NCBI RefSeq assembly: GCF_000421745.1
Contig: NZ_ATXP01000005.1
Coordinates: forward strand, 62,001 to 126,000
DNA from: Nesterenkonia alba DSM 19423
Lineage (GTDB): Bacteria; Actinomycetota; Actinomycetes; Actinomycetales; Micrococcaceae
Reading direction: 5' to 3'
DNA: 64,000 nt
Below the pieces are notes generated by a model, which was not told where the DNA came from, did not search any database, and saw only the letters and a program-made list of their open reading frames with translations. Position numbers and translations under genes: made by a program. Positions 11,222-33,903 of the stretch are shown piece by piece (position 1 is the stretch's first letter; every line of letters starts with the position of its first letter).

Positions 11222-12049
11222 CTAGGCGTTAATGATGCCGAAACTGAGCATGATGTAGACGAAGATACCCAGTAGGATCCGGTAGCCCACGAACAGGTTG
11301 TAGCTGTTGCGGGACACATAGGTCAGGAACCAGCCGATGATCACGTAAGCGACCACGAAACCGACCGCGGTAGCCAGGATAGTTTGTCCCATCGTGTAGG
11401 GGCCGGCCTGTTCACCGAAGGCCCCGATCAGCTTGTAGAGTCCGGAACCGAATACCGCCGGAATCGCTAGCAGGAATGAGTACCGGGCCGCGGCTTCACG
11501 GGTGTACCCCATCAGGAGGCCCGCGGTGATGGTACCTCCGGAGCGGGAGACTCCGGGGATCAGCGCCATGGCCTGGGCGAAGCCGAAGATGATGCCGTCG
11601 CGCACACTGAGCCGCTCCAGGGGTTTGCGCTGGGTGCTTACGTGGTCGGCGAATCCCAGCAGGATTCCGAAGGCGATCAGCATGGTGGCCACCAGCCACA
11701 GGCTGCGGAATGCGGACATGATGTAGTCCTCCAGCAGCAGCCCCAACACCACGATCGGGATAGTGCCGACAATGATCAGCCAGCCCATCCGCGCATCCGG
11801 GTCACTGTGGGAACCGTGGCCGAACACGGCAGCGAACCATGCCTTCAGAATTCGGACAATGTCTCGCCAGAAGAACACCAGCACAGCGGCCTCGGTGCCG
11901 AGCTGGGTGATGGCGGTGAACGCCGCACCCGGGTCCTGAGCCCCGGGGAGGAATTCCCCGACGATCCGCAGGTGGGCAGACGACGAAATCGGGAGAAATT
12001 CAGTCAGGCCCTGAACCAGGCCCAGAATGATCGCTTCGATCCATTGCAC
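11222..12049 (-). CDS. uppP: Undecaprenyl-diphosphatase
   Basis: Membrane phosphatase that recycles undecaprenyl pyrophosphate for peptidoglycan synthesis; overproduction gives bacitracin resistance. 275 residues with the family motifs [20 protein letters not shown] (N-terminal Glu-rich site) and the PGVSRSG loop, and about eight membrane helices. ATG 12049 follows an AGGTG ribosome site. It stands alone between the copper operon and the defence island. Confidence 0.96.
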
Positions 12050-12142
12050 CTGCTGAGTTTACTGGGCTTCGTAGACTGCAGAGCGAGGAATGTCCCCGAC
12101 TTGGGGCAATATTCGTGTGGACCCGCTATCTGACGCGGATTC

Positions 12143-12388
12143 GTGCTGTGTTCGGTGGACGCGGGTGGACTAAAACCGAACACCTGGCAGCGGTTCGAGC
12201 GGCTCAGTTCCGCTTGGAGTCAGGCGAAAAGCCGTATCGGTGACGCGCCCGACTGTACCTCTGACGATGAGCTGAGGGTCCTCTCGAACTCTAGGAGACG
12301 AGGAGCGAACGGTGAGAGGGTCATGTCCGTCTCTCGGCGGTTCGACGTGCACCGGATGACGGTGTGGACTCACACGAAACACGTGTGA
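12143..12388 (+). pseudogene. Relic of a recombinase-type helix-turn-helix protein
   Basis: An open frame of 81 codons. Only its C-terminus is recognisable: VMSVSRRFDVHRMTVWTHTK reads as a resolvase-type helix-turn-helix. It resembles the C-terminus of the gene at 17002-17292 (VKTLVRRFRIHRATVWTKTR), and both share an upstream W.Q segment. The two therefore look like diverged copies on either side of the large STAND gene. No catalytic domain is present. Likely a degraded fragment. Confidence 0.5.
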
Positions 12389-12663
12389 CGGACAAAAGCC
12401 GGCGCGGTCAGCTCGTTTCAACAACAGTGCTGACAGGCCGTCAGGACCGGGGCCGACGGCCGGACCTGACGATCCACCACCTTCGCCACACAGCGCTCAC
12501 GGTCGCTGGGCAACACGGCGCAACCGGCGCCGAGCTCGAGGCCCACGCGGGCAACGCCTCCCAGGCGCCCATAGTGATCTACCAGCACGCAACCCTCGAC
12601 CGCGATAAGGCGCTGGCGGAGCGGATCGGCGCAACGTACGACGCTTGGCACAGCTTCCCATCC
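12364..12663 (+). pseudogene. C-terminal fragment of a tyrosine recombinase (integrase)
   Basis: About 70 residues align by eye to the catalytic C-terminus of phage-type integrases: IHHLRHTALTVAGQHGAT carries the HxxR box, and VIYQHATLDRDKALAERI carries the nucleophilic Tyr. The usual GH of the second box is replaced by GN in HAGNASQAP. The core-binding domain and first catalytic Arg region are missing, and the frame runs on into the next gene, so this is a relic. It marks the left border of the island. Confidence 0.75.
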
Positions 12664-12727
12664 CGACTCGGTGAACTTCCATACGCATTTAACGCGTTCG
12701 CACGCATCTATTGCGTACCGTATAGTC

Positions 12728-15700
12728 ATGGCAGACCTTGGCGACATGCTGCGCGCGGCTCGTGGTCGACTCGGAATCGATCAAGCCGAGCTCGGCCGGC
12801 GCGTTGGCGTAGGCCAGCAGGCAGTCAGCCGCTGGGAGAGCGGAGGCAGTCGACCGCGGCCCCCAACGGCTGAGAAGGTGGGCCGTGCCCTTAACCTGCG
12901 CGTCGAGGACGTCCTCGAGGCCGCTGGCCACAGTTCCATCCCTTCCGCGGAGGCAGAGACGGTTCCCGTGCGGCCTTTGCTACGCACTCTGCCTTTCCAT
13001 GAGCTGAGCGCGGAGCGCTTTGAGGACGCTTGCGCTGAGGTTCTCGGATACCTACATCCGGAAGGTCACGCATCACGGTTCGGCGGGGCTGGTGAGAAAC
13101 AAGATGGCATCGATCTTCTCGTCGACGGCGAGCTGACCGTCAAAGGGCAATGCAAGCGTCATCGTCAATTCGGTCCCAAGCAGGTCCGAGATGCAATCGC
13201 TGCGGTTGACGTGCCGGCGACCATCAACTACCTATTCCTCTCGCGCACAACGGCTTCCGCTGCCGCTCGCAAGGAGATCGCAAAGGTGCCCGCCTGGCAG
13301 CTGTGGGATGGTGAGGATCTGTCCCGTTGGGTGAGGTCCAACCTGTTCGTCAGCTCGCCGGAGTCCGCGGTGCGCTTCGTCGAGACCTACTTCCCGAACC
13401 ATCGGGAGTCGTTCCTCGGCGTTCCTGAGCCGAGTTCATGGCAGACCCCCGACCAGTTCTTCGCCACTTTCACTGGAACAAGTGGGTTCAATCACGATTG
13501 GGCATTGGTTGGGCGCTCGAACGAACTCGCTTCGCTCCGAGACGAGATTGGAGGCGGCGAGGTGCCTGTCTCGGTTCTCGTCGGGCGGGGCGGGATCGGC
13601 AAGACGCGATTGATCCGAGAGGTTGCGGTCGCCTTGGAAGCAAGTCATTGGCTAGTGCGGTTACTCCCCGCAGGCGCCGTGCCGACAGCTCACGATTTCG
13701 AGCTTCTCCCCGCCAGCGGGAACGTCCTCATAGTCATCGATGACGCTCACGATCGAAACGACTGCGCGAATGTCGTTGCGGGCATCTGCGCCCGGAATGA
13801 CAGCGCGAAGGTTCTGATCGCGACCCGACCTTACGGCAGGCCTGAGCTTGCTGCCCAGTTTGCGCGGATATCGATGCGCCTCTCTGACCTCCACACCGTG
13901 GAGTTGGACGACCTGACGCAATCCGCGGTCGTTGAGCTCGCTCAGCAGGCCCTGGGACCGGAGAACGAGATCTTCTCCGAGCGCCTTGCCTCTGTATCGC
14001 GCGACTGCCCACTCATCACTACAGTCGGCGGGTTCCTGATCCGCACCAGGTCTCTGGACCCAAGGCTGTTGGAGCAGGACGAAGACATCAGGTCAGAGGT
14101 CCTCTTGAAATTCAAGGACATTCTTGTTCCAACCAGCGGGGGCGCTGACCCAGACGCTCGCAGCGAGGTACTCAACTGCGTAGCTGCGCTCCAGCCCTTC
14201 AGAATCGGGAATGTCGGGTTCCGGGAGGCACTTGAGTCCCTGATCAGCCGGCCATTCGACCGGCTACTCCCTCACTTGATCGCTCTCGAGGAATCGGGTG
14301 CTCTTCTGCGCCGAGGCGACAGCCTTCGTATCGTGCCCGATCTCCTGGGTGACGTGATCCTCGCCGACGCAGCGATCGACCGTCGTTCGGGGACAGACAG
14401 TGGCTTTCTCAAGCGCCTATATGAAGCGGCGACCGGTGACGCCCTGGCGAACGCGTTCGTGAACACGGCGCGGGTGGACTGGCAGATCGATCGACAAGTC
14501 GTCCGCCTTAGCACGCGCTTCTGGGATGCGCTGATGACCGGGATCAGCAGCTCGGCCAGCGTCGCCGCGTACAGCCAGCTGCTCAGCGTGCTAAAGCGGG
14601 TGGCGCAGTATCAGCCGTCGCGCACGATCGAGGCAGTGAACAAAATCCTCTGCCATCCCGTTGAGGACGAGGATCCGCCTGCTACCGACGGCTGGCAGTG
14701 GCACACAACCTGGCGGGACGTTCTCGCAACTATACCGGACGTGCTCAAGCCGACCACCTACTCCCTCGATCACATCCGTGATGCTTGCGAGCTTCTTTGG
14801 AAGCTGGCGCAGTCGGATCGACGTGCGACACATCAACACCCCAGTCACCCACTCCGAGTACTCCAAGAGCTCGCAGAGTACGACGTCTCCAAACCGGTGG
14901 CATTCAACCGAGCAATGCTCAACATGGCGATCTCTTGGTCGAAAGACTTTCCTTCAATCTCGCCACTGGCTCCAATCAAGGGCCTCGTTGAGACCGAGGG
15001 GCATTCGACGACATTCCGCGACAATGCGCTGCACTTCCATCCTTTCTCACTAAATCAGGATGTCGTGCGCCCGATTAGGCAGTCAGCCTTGGATCTAGCG
15101 TTCCGCGAACTCGGCCACCCTGATACGTGGCGAGGGATAGCGGCTGCGAAGTTCATCGGATCCGCGATCAGGTACCCGCGCGGAGTATTTGGACGACAGG
15201 TGAGCCTCGATGAGCGTCACTCTTGGGATGACGATTTCGTCGCTACGGCAGGTGCGGTTGCGCAGGCTGTGTCGAACGCGGAGCTCGATCCCGCGGTGGC
15301 TGTTGCGCTGATGGAGGCGCTGCACTGGCATGCTGACTACGGGTCCGGGATGGTCCAGGATGCTGCCGAAACTGCTCTCCTTCAGCTACCCACGTCCCTC
15401 TCATTTGAGGTCGCGCTGATGGTCCACGATGGGTGGGGGCACCTCGTACGAGAGCGCGACATGACGTTCGAGGAGCATCAGCAGGTCACTGTGGAGATGC
15501 TCGCACGAATCTCCCGCCGGGTCCTCGATGAATGCGACGACGGCCGGGCCGTCGATCTCGTCCTGGAGCGTCTCGCTGTCGAGCGCACGGATCCCGATCG
15601 TGATCCGACTGGTGTGAACCGCCTGATCTCGGAGATGGCTCAACAGCGGCCGAGCATCCTCCCCGAGATTGCAACGAGGGCAGTGACATCAGATGATCCG

Positions 15701-16816
15701 AGCCTAATCAGTCTTCTTCCAACAATGATTGACATGTCGGGCAGGCTGATGCCTGAACGACTGATCGATACCTATCGACGCTTGGCCGAAGCCGATCATG
15801 TCGCCATCCGCGTCTCAGCCGCATGTGGCTTAGCGGCACGCACCCGCTACGACTACCCACTCGTGCCCCACGAACTCGAGATTCTCCACGGGTTGGCTAG
15901 ACACGACGATGCGGCCGTGCGACTGGCGGTCGTCGACGGCGCCGCATCACTAGCCAGGTCCGACCTCGCGTCGGCCAGCAGCTTGCTCTGCAACGTGCCG
16001 TTCGCCGACTCCTCGGCGGTCTCGCACCGGGTTCTGTCGTATCTAACATGGGAGCGCGGCGAACTGACCTGGACCGCGCTCGATCCAGAGGCAAAAGAGT
16101 CGCTCTTGGCCGAAGTAAGTCGGATGATCTCCTTCGATGGCCACGAGATCGAGGAGTTCCTCCGACACAGGTCCGCAGAAGATCCCCGTCGGATCCTCCG
16201 GATGCTACAAGGCCGAGTTGAGTTGGCGGAGCGGGAGGACGCTCCCCCGAGATACCGGCCTGTCCCAATTCTCTGGCACGGGTCGCTTGACCTTCGGCGC
16301 GATCCCGCCTTCTTAGAGTACCTGACAGAGCTCCTGAGTTGGATTGGTTCTAGCGAGGCTTGGCAGCGCCGGCATATGGGCAAGGAATTGTTTGCCGCGG
16401 CGGCAGAATCCTTCGATGATGCGGTTCTTTCTCTGTTGCTCAAGTTCGTCCAGACCGGAACAGCTGAGGATTGTGCGACCGTCGCGGAAGTACTCTCAGA
16501 GGCATCTCCCAGCATGGTCTTCGACCAAGTCGATATGGTTTCAGAATTGCTCGACGCCGCTGCTCGTCTTGGCTCTCAGTCGCTAAAGCGAATGAGAAGC
16601 GGTCTGTGGGCGTCCGCGGTCGCCGGCACCCGAACAGGCGCTGTCGGGGAGCCATTCGATGAAGATGTTCGCATGCGTGACGAAGGAGCGGCCATTGCAT
16701 CGCGGTTGCCCCCCGGCTCGCCGACGGAAGCATTTTACCGGGATCTGAGCGAGTCGGGAGCCCGAGCTGTCGAGCAAGAGCGCGATCGTGACGTGTTCGA
16801 CTCCCGCGAATGGTAA
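12728..16816 (+). CDS. XRE - Mrr-like nuclease - STAND NTPase - helical repeat protein (candidate defence gene)
   Basis: 1362 residues. Residues 5-62 are an XRE helix-turn-helix (QAELGRRVGVGQQAVSRWESG). Residues 85-210 are a restriction-endonuclease fold with the Mrr pattern: Asp129 in DGIDLL, then Gln141 and Lys143 in KGQCKRH. Residues 255-420 are a STAND-type P-loop ATPase with Walker A GRGGIGKT (Lys292), Walker B VLIVIDDAHD (Asp338-Asp339) and sensor VLIATRP. About 900 residues of alpha-helical, HEAT/TPR-like sequence follow and could sense a ligand. This is the plan of Avs-type anti-phage ATPases, but with an added XRE domain I do not know from described Avs families. Recombinase relics flank it. 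No good ribosome site precedes ATG 12728; TATAGT ends 1 bp before it, so ATG 12746 is possible. Confidence 0.85.
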   Translation: MADLGDMLRAARGRLGIDQAELGRRVGVGQQAVSRWESGGSRPRPPTAEKVGRALNLRVEDVLEAAGHSSIPSAEAETVPVRPLLRTLPFHELSAERFEDACAEVLGYLHPEGHASRFGGAGEKQDGIDLLVDGELTVKGQCKRHRQFGPKQVRDAIAAVDVPATINYLFLSRTTASAAARKEIAKVPAWQLWDGEDLSRWVRSNLFVSSPESAVRFVETYFPNHRESFLGVPEPSSWQTPDQFFATFTGTSGFNHDWALVGRSNELASLRDEIGGGEVPVSVLVGRGGIGKTRLIREVAVALEASHWLVRLLPAGAVPTAHDFELLPASGNVLIVIDDAHDRNDCANVVAGICARNDSAKVLIATRPYGRPELAAQFARISMRLSDLHTVELDDLTQSAVVELAQQALGPENEIFSERLASVSRDCPLITTVGGFLIRTRSLDPRLLEQDEDIRSEVLLKFKDILVPTSGGADPDARSEVLNCVAALQPFRIGNVGFREALESLISRPFDRLLPHLIALEESGALLRRGDSLRIVPDLLGDVILADAAIDRRSGTDSGFLKRLYEAATGDALANAFVNTARVDWQIDRQVVRLSTRFWDALMTGISSSASVAAYSQLLSVLKRVAQYQPSRTIEAVNKILCHPVEDEDPPATDGWQWHTTWRDVLATIPDVLKPTTYSLDHIRDACELLWKLAQSDRRATHQHPSHPLRVLQELAEYDVSKPVAFNRAMLNMAISWSKDFPSISPLAPIKGLVETEGHSTTFRDNALHFHPFSLNQDVVRPIRQSALDLAFRELGHPDTWRGIAAAKFIGSAIRYPRGVFGRQVSLDERHSWDDDFVATAGAVAQAVSNAELDPAVAVALMEALHWHADYGSGMVQDAAETALLQLPTSLSFEVALMVHDGWGHLVRERDMTFEEHQQVTVEMLARISRRVLDECDDGRAVDLVLERLAVERTDPDRDPTGVNRLISEMAQQRPSILPEIATRAVTSDDPSLISLLPTMIDMSGRLMPERLIDTYRRLAEADHVAIRVSAACGLAARTRYDYPLVPHELEILHGLARHDDAAVRLAVVDGAASLARSDLASASSLLCNVPFADSSAVSHRVLSYLTWERGELTWTALDPEAKESLLAEVSRMISFDGHEIEEFLRHRSAEDPRRILRMLQGRVELAEREDAPPRYRPVPILWHGSLDLRRDPAFLEYLTELLSWIGSSEAWQRRHMGKELFAAAAESFDDAVLSLLLKFVQTGTAEDCATVAEVLSEASPSMVFDQVDMVSELLDAAARLGSQSLKRMRSGLWASAVAGTRTGAVGEPFDEDVRMRDEGAAIASRLPPGSPTEAFYRDLSESGARAVEQERDRDVFDSREW

Positions 16817-16898
16817 TTGTTCCTGGGCGAGCTGAGTGTCAGCTAGATCTACATTTTCGCAGCGTCGAGATCACCGCTTCGCCGCTGCTTGTAAGACT

Positions 16899-16926
16899 CG
16901 GCCGACGAGGGGCAAGTCGTCGGCCG
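16899..16926. terminator. Strong hairpin downstream of the STAND gene
   Basis: CGGCCGACGA at 16899-16908 and TCGTCGGCCG at 16917-16926 form a perfect 10-bp stem with an 8-base loop. There is no T-run, so termination is only likely. A second stem (GGCGAC at 16950, GTCGCC at 16975) follows. The 185-bp gap holds nothing else recognisable. Confidence 0.45.
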
Positions 16927-17001
16927 TGACGTTACAGCGAAGACGAAAGGGCGACGAGCCGACTCGCTGAGCCGGTCGCCGCCCTCACCAGAACGGAAAT
17001 T

Positions 17002-17292
17002 GTGGGCCTAATGAAGCACTGCCGGAACAGGCGACAGCACATCCAGAAGCTGGTTTCCGCGTGGAATCAGGGCCTTCTTGAGGGCGACAAGCGTGTCCCT
17101 GAGCAAGGTGCTTCCCTCATCGGCGTGTTAGCAGAGGCAACGAGACAACCTCGAACACCGCTGACTGCGAGAGAAGTGGACGCTTTGCGAACAGCCCACG
17201 CTAATGGAGTCAGCGTCAAGACTCTCGTCAGACGATTCAGAATCCATCGTGCCACGGTATGGACGAAGACCAGGAAATCATTTGGGGACTAG
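17002..17292 (+). CDS. Small protein with resolvase-type C-terminal helix-turn-helix
   Basis: 96 residues. The C-terminal half, LTAREVDALRTAHANGVSVK then TLVRRFRIHRATVWTKTR, is a typical Hin/resolvase DNA-binding helix-turn-helix. The N-terminal half (HIQKLVSAWNQGLLEG) has no recognised domain and no serine-recombinase catalytic residues. It is either an orphan DNA-binding protein or a recombinase relic. The related fragment at 12143-12388 suggests the latter. Confidence 0.5.
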   Translation: MGLMKHCRNRRQHIQKLVSAWNQGLLEGDKRVPEQGASLIGVLAEATRQPRTPLTAREVDALRTAHANGVSVKTLVRRFRIHRATVWTKTRKSFGD

Positions 17293-17368: not shown

Positions 17369-17797
17369 TTAGGCCCAAGGCTCTTCAGTGGTTAACTCTT
17401 CATCATCACCTTCGTCAAGCATACCCATGTAATCAACAACTCTGGACTGCACAAGCTCGAGACGAGCTGCATCAAGGAGCCCTACCCTATCTTCCAACAT
17501 GGCCTTCTCAAGCGGTTGGAGTGCGGGGACACGTATCCACGTCTTTTTACTTTGTCCGAACTCGCCCTTGTTGATCTGGACACAATAACTTGTGCGCCAG
17601 GAGGTCTGCGAGGAAAGTGGACAACCAAGAACTAGTGGCCAGCCTTCATTTCGATTCGTCTCCGGGCCGGACAACACAACAAACGGCCGTCGCTCCTTGT
17701 GAAGACGACGCTTGCTCTCTGGTGGCAAGGAGAGCGACTCATCCGTAACTAGGTAGATACCGCCCAAAATTGGGCGTAATACAGAATCTGCCCTCAC
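17369..17797 (-). CDS. MazF/PemK-like toxin
   Basis: 142 residues with the MazF/PemK fold pattern: PILGGIYLVTDESL at the N-terminus, then RRPFVVLSGPETN, WPLVLGCPLSS and TWIRVPALQPLEKA. Such toxins are usually sequence-specific ribonucleases. It starts with GTG overlapping the stop of the Panacea gene by 4 bp (GTGA), so the antitoxin is made first. Base composition from 17.3 to 18.5 kb is visibly more AT-rich than the neighbours, which suggests transfer. The C-terminus is an acidic tail (DEGDDEELTTEEPWA). Confidence 0.75.
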   Translation of the reverse strand: MRADSVLRPILGGIYLVTDESLSLPPESKRRLHKERRPFVVLSGPETNRNEGWPLVLGCPLSSQTSWRTSYCVQINKGEFGQSKKTWIRVPALQPLEKAMLEDRVGLLDAARLELVQSRVVDYMGMLDEGDDEELTTEEPWA

Positions 17798-18426
17798 AGA
17801 ATCTTCTCATTCGCCCTTCTGATCCAGCCTTTATTCTCTCGGAACTCAGCAACAAGACCTGTCTGCACTTCCTCGGGAACAGTCCCGACGGGCTGGCGCG
17901 ATTCGCGATGTTTCGCAAGTTTCTTAAGCGTTTTTGCCATTGGCTTTACTGGCCGTCGTCCCGTGAGATCTAACCGAACACCCCGCTGCGTCTTCTGAGC
18001 TTCGAGCATCGGAGCTGTGGTGTACGTTAAGTCTTTAAGAGAACTGGGTGATAATCTCCCATACTCACGAACTGTAGCAGCCATCAACTCATAGAATTCT
18101 TCGTCAACCGCATACCGAGGCGCATGTTTCAATGAAAGTGTCGTCTGGGGCGTCCCGTAGTAATTCTCACCCACCTCGCGCTCAGCAATGCCCTCTCGAA
18201 CCAACGCCTCTTCGGCAACGATTAACTCCCGTGCCCATGGACCGTAGTTGTACCAGATCCAGGGAGTTCCAGAGGTAGCAGCAAGGCCATCTTCGGTTGC
18301 TTGAAGGTCAGCAAGATACAGAAGCTTGGCGAGCTTCGTCCGTGTGACCGAGATTCCCTCCCGTGCAGCTAGCTCCAAAAGAGCAATGAGGGAGGCGGCA
18401 GGGCCAGCATAACGATACTTGGTCAT
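17794..18426 (-). CDS. Panacea (DUF4065/SocA-like) domain antitoxin
   Basis: 210 residues. The DUF4065 signature covers the N-terminal two thirds: LIALLELAAREGISVTRTKL then AKLLYLADLQA, and TPWIWYNYGPWAREL. Panacea domains neutralise many unrelated toxins, and here the partner is the MazF/PemK-like protein encoded directly downstream. The C-terminal 60 residues are basic (KPMAKTLKKLAKHRESR) and could bind the toxin or DNA. Identity rests on the domain pattern and the overlapping gene order. Confidence 0.8.
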   Translation of the reverse strand: MTKYRYAGPAASLIALLELAAREGISVTRTKLAKLLYLADLQATEDGLAATSGTPWIWYNYGPWARELIVAEEALVREGIAEREVGENYYGTPQTTLSLKHAPRYAVDEEFYELMAATVREYGRLSPSSLKDLTYTTAPMLEAQKTQRGVRLDLTGRRPVKPMAKTLKKLAKHRESRQPVGTVPEEVQTGLVAEFRENKGWIRRANEKIL

Positions 18427-30488: not shown

Positions 30489-30615
30489 GCGCGGCCACGG
30501 AGGAAAACCGCGGAGGATCCCTTGTGGGAGCACGTTTACCTTTGGGAGCTAGGTTCTTGAGCTCTCAAAGGTAAACGGCGAGTGAAGGAGGAGGGGTTTT
30601 CCGTAGTGGCCGCGC
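30489..30615. repeat. Structured repeat element, copy 1 (three-stem)
   Basis: The outer arms 30489-30509 and 30595-30615 pair over 18 of 21 positions. Inside are GGAGGAT, a small hairpin TCCC-TTGT-GGGA at 30518-30529, and an 18-bp hairpin 30533-30550/30560-30577 with the 9-base loop AGGTTCTTG. GCGAGTGAAGGAGGA then leads to the right arm. Copy 2 at 33721-33903 has the same plan and the same conserved unpaired blocks, but different stem sequences that still pair. A possible 34-codon frame starts at GTG 30606 on the plus strand after AAGGAGGAGG. It reads TRFSRDEALELG then IVSVAAWIQLHRR and weakly resembles N-termini of AbiEi/DUF559-type proteins. Confidence 0.75.
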
Positions 30616-33720: not shown

Positions 33721-33903
33721 GGTGGGGTGGTACAGCACCCGGAGGATTCTCCCTGACGTGGCCCGCACAAACAGAACCCTGTGTTTGCACGGGTCCCTAA
33801 CGTCAGGGGCCCCTGTGCGAGCGCGTTTACCTACGCGAGCTAGTTTCGTGAGCTCGCGTAGGTAAACGGCGAGTGAAGGAGGAGGGTGCTGTACCACCCC
33901 ACC
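33721..33903. repeat. Structured repeat element, copy 2 (three-stem), in the dnaA-dnaN gap
   Basis: A perfect 20-bp outer stem, GGTGGGGTGGTACAGCACCC at 33721-33740 with its complement at 33884-33903. Inside are GGAGGAT (33741), a long second arm closed by CCCTGACGT/ACGTCAGGG (33751-33759 with 33800-33808), and a perfect 18-bp hairpin 33824-33841/33851-33868 with the 9-base loop AGTTTCGTG. GCGAGTGAAGGAGGA precedes the right arm. The hairpin keeps CGTTTACCT and AGCT ends from copy 1, but its middle differs on both strands, so pairing is preserved. Confidence 0.8.

What the first reader, a model, noticed from the sequence alone, without database searches (positions are those of the whole stretch)
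12728..16816. Single-gene candidate defence system: XRE + Mrr-like nuclease + STAND ATPase + long helical sensor
Seen: a 1362-residue protein with an XRE helix-turn-helix, a nuclease motif (Asp129, Gln141-x-Lys143), a P-loop ATPase (Lys292, Asp338-339, ATRP sensor) and about 900 helical residues, between recombinase relics. Known: Avs-type STAND proteins couple a nuclease to phage sensing through a C-terminal repeat region. Inferred: this is an Avs-like abortive-infection protein. The XRE part could bind its own promoter or target the nuclease to specific DNA, which would be a new arrangement.
Basis: partly seen in the sequence, partly recalled or inferred. Interest (0 to 1): 0.88.

Follow-up and report, generated by a model that had tools for sequence, protein, structure and literature searches.

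The report
Self-repressing NLR-like nuclease defence gene
One bacterial gene appears to join a DNA-cutting immune enzyme, its likely infection sensor and the repressor that keeps the gene switched off, which could show how a dangerous defence protein is kept safe before attack.

Summary
Window 12728-16816 encodes an intact 1362-residue protein with an XRE helix-turn-helix, an Mrr nuclease domain and an nSTAND5 NTPase, each over Pfam's cut-off, then about 800 predicted helical residues, probably HEAT-like. The nuclease residues E99, D129, Q141 and K143 are kept in 17 of 17 family members that carry the domain, and the nuclease is the most constrained part. A 4.6-kb block with the gene also lies in another genus with unrelated flanks. 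It works like an Avs/NLR nuclease but matches no Avs model in PADLOC.

The new result concerns XRE. 9 of 11 XRE-type genes, but 0 of 8 relatives without XRE, carry a palindrome ACGCATnnnATGCGT (at least 10 of 12 positions) in the 100 bases before the start. 10 of 11, against 0 of 8, have a -10-like hexamer in a fixed place beside it. In the host genome three sites come within one mismatch; two are this promoter's. XRE therefore most likely represses its own gene. Sensor, nuclease and autorepressor in one chain is a new variant of a known kind. Phage defence itself is untested.

The parts
12683..12697 (+). distal operator-like palindrome ACGCATTTAACGCGT (11 of 12 consensus positions)
12702..12716 (+). 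proximal operator-like palindrome ACGCATCTATTGCGT (11 of 12), at -26 to -12 from the start codon
12716..12721 (+). -10-like hexamer TACCGT at -12, same place in 10 of 11 XRE loci; a generic scan instead picks the overlapping TATAGT at 12721-12726
12728..16816 (+). the gene: 1362-aa XRE-Mrr-nSTAND5-helical solenoid protein
12749..12907 (+). XRE helix-turn-helix (residues 8-60)
   Evidence: HTH_3, 46.4 bits
12998..13333 (+). Mrr nuclease domain (residues 91-202), E99, D129, Q141, K143
   Evidence: Mrr_cat over cut-off; residues kept in 17 of 17 rows with the domain
13505..14014 (+). STAND NTPase (about residues 260-429), K292, D338-D339, R367-P368
   Evidence: nSTAND_NTPase5, AAA_16, NB-ARC matches; K292 and D339 in 20 of 20 rows
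14525..16813 (+). C-terminal helical region (residues 600-1362), probably HEAT-like, putative sensor
12303..16929 (.). block shared with genome G001 (another genus) at 87.9%, with unrelated flanks
12364..12873 (+). ORF with a decayed tyrosine-recombinase C-terminal piece upstream of the gene
   Evidence: Phage_integrase E 0.15; no codon bias against G001
17002..17292 (+). resolvase-type HTH piece downstream
   Evidence: HTH_23 E 0.001, HTH_7 E 0.16

Best explanation
The gene encodes a single-chain NLR-like (STAND) immune nuclease that represses its own transcription. At rest the XRE domain binds one or two palindromic operators that overlap its promoter and keeps the protein scarce (sites shown, binding inferred). 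When the C-terminal helical solenoid meets a trigger, probably a phage or mobile-element protein, the STAND NTPase oligomerises (inferred from the superfamily). This brings the N-terminal Mrr domains together to cut double-stranded DNA and stop the invader, probably at the cost of the cell (inferred).
For: Three domains over Pfam cut-offs. E, D, Q, K of the nuclease kept in 17 of 17 rows with the domain, and Walker A lysine and D339 in 20 of 20. Purifying selection against G001: dN/dS 0.063/0.287 for the gene, 0.019/0.275 for the nuclease. Relatives carry EAD1, NNH1 or another N-terminus before the same STAND core. Operator-like sites in 9 of 11 XRE loci against 0 of 8 without XRE, hexamer at -12/-13 in 10 of 11 against 0 of 8, two of the own genome's three best sites at this promoter. 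Sporadic presence, shared block in another genus, defence neighbours at 3 of 10 loci looked at, the window included.
Against: No experiment. The nuclease fold rests on sequence; the model of that half is poor (mean pLDDT 52). Defence neighbours were found at only 3 of 10 loci, with few genes scanned at most of them and no background rate. G746 and G1491 lack the consensus site. The consensus was read from 8 of the 11 loci, so only 3 are held out, and 2 of these 3 fit. One control, G374, scores 9 of 12, reached by 8 of 1000 shuffles. The promoter stretch is not significantly better conserved than the relic next to it between the window and G001 (p 0.38). Between these two copies the HTH evolves fastest (0.130/0.238).
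Confidence: 0.62

Rival explanations
1. A STAND-type transcription regulator (MalT/AfsR-like, recalled) that controls other genes; the nuclease domain is secondary or repurposed.
For: XRE plus STAND plus helical repeats resembles STAND regulators; conserved DNA-site evidence.
Against: The nuclease is the most constrained part (dN/dS 0.019/0.275) with all four catalytic residues kept in 17 of 17 rows. Only one site within one mismatch lies outside the gene's own promoter in the host genome. G747 and G238 do have 11 and 7 such sites (control pattern 5 and 2), which leaves some room for other targets.
Confidence: 0.1
2. A single-chain toxin-antitoxin or addiction gene: the XRE part acts as an antitoxin-like autorepressor of a DNA-cutting toxin, serving to keep a mobile element rather than to fight phage.
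For: XRE resembles antitoxin HTHs (TIGR03070 and MqsA-type matches below cut-off; RmrA models). Recombinase-type genes lie near several copies. A PemK/SocA-like pair lies next door.
Against: A sensor-like solenoid of about 800 residues and a STAND switch are not needed for addiction; relatives without XRE keep nuclease and STAND, so XRE is not required to hold the nuclease.
Confidence: 0.14
3. The XRE domain aims the nuclease at operator-like sequences in invader DNA, a sequence-specific restriction-like enzyme.
Against: The conserved site is at the gene's own promoter in 9 of 11 loci, which such an enzyme would cut. G747 and G238 carry 11 and 7 sites within one mismatch. No methylase lies in the shared block.
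Confidence: 0.06

Closest known systems
Avs (AVAST) STAND nucleases, above all Avs4 (PDB 8dgf)
   Same: N-terminal nuclease, central STAND NTPase, long C-terminal helical part; Avs1-Avs4 nuclease effectors cut phage and host DNA on sensing phage proteins (PMC12931631, passages). The family's STAND profile matches Avs4 weakly (E 0.016, behind other P-loop ATPases). That Avs4's nuclease is Mrr-like is recalled.
   Different: No Avs model among all 13 PADLOC families matched at E<=1; nuclease profile does not find Avs4; HEAT-like rather than TPR-type repeats; XRE autorepressor fused in front.
Separate HTH repressors of immune operons: CapH/CapP, CapW/BrxR, CapS; XRE protein CdxB over the CARD-NLR-like lypABC
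   Same: HTH repression of a toxic immune gene through palindromic or promoter sites (PMC13373217 and PMC13236601, passages).
   Different: There the repressor is its own protein; here it is part of the receptor-nuclease chain, and no protease, kinase or WYL partner is in the shared block.
Mrr-family restriction enzymes (Mrr_cat; LlaBIII nuclease domain, PDB 4xqk; Mrr-beta-propeller defence protein of PMC9519451)
   Same: Same nuclease family by Pfam and catalytic pattern; the profile's only PDB hit is LlaBIII (E 0.037).
   Different: Coupled to a STAND switch, not to a helicase-methylase or a propeller.
nSTAND/EAD conflict systems of actinobacteria and others (PMC7159879, PMC8195603, passages)
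   Same: Same class of NTPase (PF25199 in 15 of 16 members at E<=0.1) and swappable N-terminal effector or adaptor; Mrr-like effectors and HTH domains are noted there.
   Different: No XRE-Mrr-STAND single chain with a conserved operator was seen in the passages read.

Membership tests
STAND NTPase superfamily (nSTAND5) | match to the curated nSTAND_NTPase5 model with Walker A and B residues | tested here: met
   35.6 bits, cut-off 34; K292 and D339 in 20 of 20 rows, D338 in 19 of 20
Mrr nuclease (PD-(D/E)xK) | match to Mrr_cat with E, D, QxK residues | tested here: met
   25.0 bits, cut-off 21; residues in 17 of 17 rows with the domain
Mrr nuclease (PD-(D/E)xK) | PD-(D/E)xK fold | tested here: inconclusive
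   model of residues 1-640 has mean pLDDT 52; no fold search was run on it
XRE autorepressor | XRE helix-turn-helix with a conserved palindrome at its own promoter | tested here: met
XRE autorepressor | binding and repression | not testable with these tools
   needs EMSA or a reporter
Avs (AVAST) | effector - STAND - C-terminal repeat layout | tested here: met
Avs (AVAST) | match to PADLOC Avs models | tested here: not met
   all 13 families at E<=1 listed, none an Avs; for 16 members, none among the 25 of 34 families shown
Avs (AVAST) | recognition of phage terminase, portal or other phage proteins | not testable with these tools
   needs co-expression or phage escape tests
anti-phage defence system | association with known defence genes | tested here: inconclusive
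   3 of 10 loci, the window included, have PADLOC neighbours; few genes scanned at most, no background rate

The most novel reading that the evidence does not exclude
A self-regulating immune receptor: the same molecule is repressor, sensor and DNA-degrading effector, and trigger-induced oligomerisation pulls it off its operator, so that infection both activates the existing protein and opens the gene for a burst of more. This would be a built-in feed-forward switch that needs no partner protein.
Probability: 0.3. Interest if true: 0.8.

Novelty: new variant of a known kind. Interest (0 to 1): 0.62.

Why it matters
How cells keep lethal immune proteins quiet until needed is an open question. 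The answers met in the papers read here use a separate repressor (CapH, CapW, CapS, CdxB). This family puts the repressor on the receptor itself and leaves a legible, conserved operator, so the link between immune activation and gene control can be tested with one gene and one 50-base promoter. It also marks out an nSTAND5 nuclease subfamily with swappable N-termini in actinomycetes and in plasmids of alphaproteobacteria.

Tried and rejected
Structure of the N-terminal half: the model from two sequences was poor (mean pLDDT 52), so no fold search was run on it. The C-terminal fold search gave generic HEAT-type solenoids at low TM-score (0.15-0.44 in the 50 rows shown). Phage records and three viral-contig scans gave no relative. 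A clean empty site could not be shown: in regions from 4 congeners similarity stops just past uppP, at 12061-12063, and the LysR gene on the other side has no close ortholog in the genus (best other matches 38-39% identity, besides a 66-residue piece at 74%). A test of whether the promoter stretch is better conserved than the neighbouring relic was not significant (40 of 49 against 282 of 376, p 0.38). Operator-directed cutting of invader DNA was considered and ranked low.

Caveats on rows: the start of control G1518 was 3 bases off (corrected). The Xanthobacter copy was left out of the operator test because its 5' end with the HTH is missing. G329 and G1293, which match only in the C-terminal part, were not pursued. 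Short or weak matches (35 of the 40 genomes) were not pursued beyond reading some frames.

Literature: nine searches listed no paper whose title or abstract start describes an XRE-Mrr-STAND protein; 'nSTAND5' is in no held paper. This is no proof of absence: only openly licensed papers are held. I read passages (term finds) of ten papers: PMC7159879, PMC8195603, PMC10907252, PMC10853773, PMC12839542, PMC12931631, PMC9519451, PMC13236601, PMC13092281 and PMC13373217; none was read whole.
Full report
What is there. At 12728-16816 (+) an intact ORF encodes 1362 residues. Pfam finds HTH_3 (8-60), Mrr_cat (91-202) and nSTAND_NTPase5 (272-368), each over its curated cut-off. Residues 560-1362 are predicted all-helical; AlphaFold with two sequences gave mean pLDDT 63, with the best ten-residue blocks at 80-92. 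Foldseek's top matches are karyopherins, SF3B-type spliceosome chains, CAND1 and a PP2A holoenzyme, that is HEAT-type solenoids, but at TM 0.15-0.44. HEAT_2 is matched in 4 of 16 members, below its cut-off in the two members looked at with it, and a profile of the C-terminal region weakly hits HEAT-type chains in the PDB (best E 0.004). The N-terminal model is poor (mean 52) except for the HTH, so the nuclease rests on sequence: Pfam, and E99, D129, Q141 and K143 kept in 17 of 17 rows that carry the domain, out of 20 rows in the family.

Relatives. A scan of GTDB contigs found one relative, in a Nanopelagicales MAG (39%). In 295 genomes of the window's own family 40 have some match at E<=0.001; 4, its own included, are near full length: G000, G001 (87%), G208 (39%) and G238 (30%). 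G104 matches over residues 79-848, without XRE; the other 35 are short or weak. Plasmids gave Rhizobium etli (27.5%, 99% covered) and Xanthobacter dioxanivorans, whose copy lacks the HTH at its 5' end, besides two partial matches. Class, order and phylum draws of 394, 396 and 396 genomes gave 7, 4 and 2 genomes with strong matches, the window's own included each time, so the family is rare. Draws of 130 and 150 genomes around G747 and G208 added G1408 and G1520, G1491 and G1518; 18 genomes of G238's genus added nothing. No phage record matches, and three viral-contig scans found no relative.

Family structure. A tree of the STAND domain (20 rows, 354 columns) puts the 11 XRE-Mrr proteins on one side of a 100/99 branch, together with the truncated Xanthobacter copy and with G667, whose N-terminus is a short different sequence. 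The other side holds five Mrr-STAND proteins without XRE and two with other N-termini, EAD1 (G349) and NNH1 (G374). The XRE label needs three changes on this tree, which may be one gain and two losses. So the part before the NTPase is a swappable effector or adaptor slot, the usual STAND layout (PMC12931631 and PMC8195603, passages), and XRE was most simply joined to a nuclease-STAND protein once.

Selection and movement. Window 12303-16929 aligns to G001, another genus, at 87.9% over 4627 bp; nothing else in the 19.9-kb G001 stretch aligns to the window. In the gene, differences fall 120/67/244 on codon positions 1/2/3; in the integrase relic 20/26/25. NG86 dN/dS: whole gene 0.063/0.287; nuclease 0.019/0.275; STAND 0.051/0.300; HTH 0.130/0.238; C-terminal segments 0.067-0.079 over 0.276-0.327. 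The nuclease is the most constrained part and the HTH the least, although its recognition segment GQQAVSRWESGGSRPR is identical in both copies.

The operator. The 250 bases upstream of the 8 XRE members then known showed a recurrent palindrome just before the start. With the consensus ACGCATnnnATGCGT read from these, 9 of 11 XRE loci have at least one site of 10 of 12 or better in the last 100 bases; the exceptions are G746 and G1491. None of 8 relatives without XRE does, though G374 reaches 9 of 12 (8 of 1000 shuffles do as well) and G1518 also 9 (46 of 1000). Of the three loci found after the consensus was set, G1408 (two sites at 10 of 12) and G1520 (one at 10 of 12 and a weaker one) fit. 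G1491 does not; it seems to have two tandem copies of another element and a changed recognition helix, QQTLS for QQAVS (read by eye). A query made from the window's own site alone gives the same split more weakly: 13-17 of 19 matches in 7 other XRE loci (0 to 16 of 1000 shuffles as good), while R. etli, G746 and G1491 (11-12 of 19) lie within the range of the controls, 9-12 of 19. The proximal site sits at -26 to -12 in the window, G001, G208 and G1408. A TAnnnT hexamer starts at -12 or -13 in 10 of 11 XRE loci against 0 of 8 controls; its background in the XRE upstream sequences is 0.008 per position. The site thus abuts or overlaps the -10 element of what looks like a nearly leaderless promoter; a generic scan prefers an overlapping hexamer five bases on. 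In the window alone, two matches at up to two mismatches are no more than chance (mean 2.2); the point is that both fall at this promoter. In the whole own genome three sites come within one mismatch and these are two of them; at two mismatches there are 41 against 31 for the reversed control pattern. In the genomes of G001, G208, G238, G1520, G747 and G1408 the counts within one mismatch are 2, 1, 7, 4, 11 and 0, against control counts of 1, 3, 2, 3, 5 and 2. One of these is the gene's own site in G001, G208, G238 and G747; the promoter sites of G1520 and G1408 have two or more mismatches and are not counted. So site rarity is not universal. Between the window and G001 the promoter stretch is not significantly better conserved than the relic beside it (p 0.38).

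Surroundings. Upstream lies a gene I recognise as uppP (11222-12049; name recalled; a match in 30 of 30 genomes of the genus), then recombinase pieces. Downstream lie another resolvase-type piece and, on the other strand, a PemK/MazF-like toxin gene with a SocA/Panacea-like neighbour. In regions from four congeners DNA similarity stops just past uppP, so the insert lies in variable DNA. PADLOC was run on 4 neighbours in the window (only a weak match, PDC-M19A E 0.008) and on neighbours of 9 other XRE-type loci, chosen by size and place. Three have known or candidate defence genes: G001 (8 genes scanned), type I R-M and a piece of LmuA; R. etli (5 scanned), GajA and GajB with a HEPN/RES-type gene between them and the XRE gene; G1491 (4 scanned), PDC-S37/Hhe-like and PbeA-like genes. 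G208, G238, L001, G746, G1408 and G1520 gave none for the single gene scanned in each; G747 was not scanned. Recombinase, integrase or transposase genes lie near L001 (below cut-off), G1520, G238 and G747 and the Xanthobacter copy. This is suggestive, not a measured enrichment.

How it probably works. Shown: domains, kept catalytic residues, purifying selection, presence in two unrelated contexts, and an operator-like element tied to the presence of XRE. Inferred: XRE binding and autorepression; trigger recognition by the solenoid; ATP-dependent oligomerisation; DNA cutting by clustered Mrr domains; arrest or death of the infected cell. The Avs parallel is one of mechanism. By model matching it is not an Avs; its STAND profile reaches Avs4 only weakly (E 0.016, behind Clp and other ATPases), and its nuclease profile hits only LlaBIII (E 0.037).

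What is new. Immune operons with separate HTH repressors are known (CapH, CapW and CapS, PMC13373217; CdxB over a CARD-NLR-like system, PMC13236601; passages). Mrr-like effectors and HTH domains in NTP-dependent conflict systems are known (PMC7159879, PMC8195603; passages). I found no description of an autorepressor fused to a STAND nuclease in the searches listed in Tried and rejected. I rate it a new variant of a known kind, with the interest resting on the operator, which makes the coupling of immune activation and gene control testable.

Noticed in passing
window 17369-18426 (-): PemK/MazF-like toxin gene (17369-17797) overlapping a SocA/Panacea-like gene (17794-18426), a likely toxin-antitoxin pair just downstream of the finding.
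   Followed up: no
L052 8227-11781 and 1611-5876 (genome G667): A STAND protein with the same core and C-terminal region but a short N-terminus with an NGxQ-type motif, and a nearby large NTPase protein with a similar motif; by eye (recalled) it resembles bacterial amyloid signalling motifs. A PNP_UDP_1 gene lies next to the second.
   Followed up: partly
L051 1330-2937 (genome G746): A second Mrr_cat protein (535 aa) lies convergent to, and a few bases from, the XRE-Mrr-STAND gene.
   Followed up: no
L066 upstream of 7701 (genome G1491): Instead of the family operator, what looks by eye like two tandem copies of another element with a TTGACAC start, along with a changed recognition helix (QQTLS): a possible case of operator and helix changing together.
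   Followed up: partly
L037 6243-8780 (-) (genome G238): A large ORF (845 aa as called, 814 aa scanned) directly downstream of the family gene and overlapping it as called, without any Pfam match at E<=0.01 or PADLOC match at E<=1e-4.
   Followed up: partly
L032 14006-15226 (R. etli plasmid): A 406-aa gene 7 bases downstream of the R. etli family gene with only a weak TIR-type match (CAP12-PCTIR_TIR E 0.009), possibly co-transcribed.
   Followed up: partly
window 30519-30595 and 33810-33886: Two 77-bp copies at 85.7% identity, the only repeat found in the window by self-BLAST at E<=1e-4.
   Followed up: no
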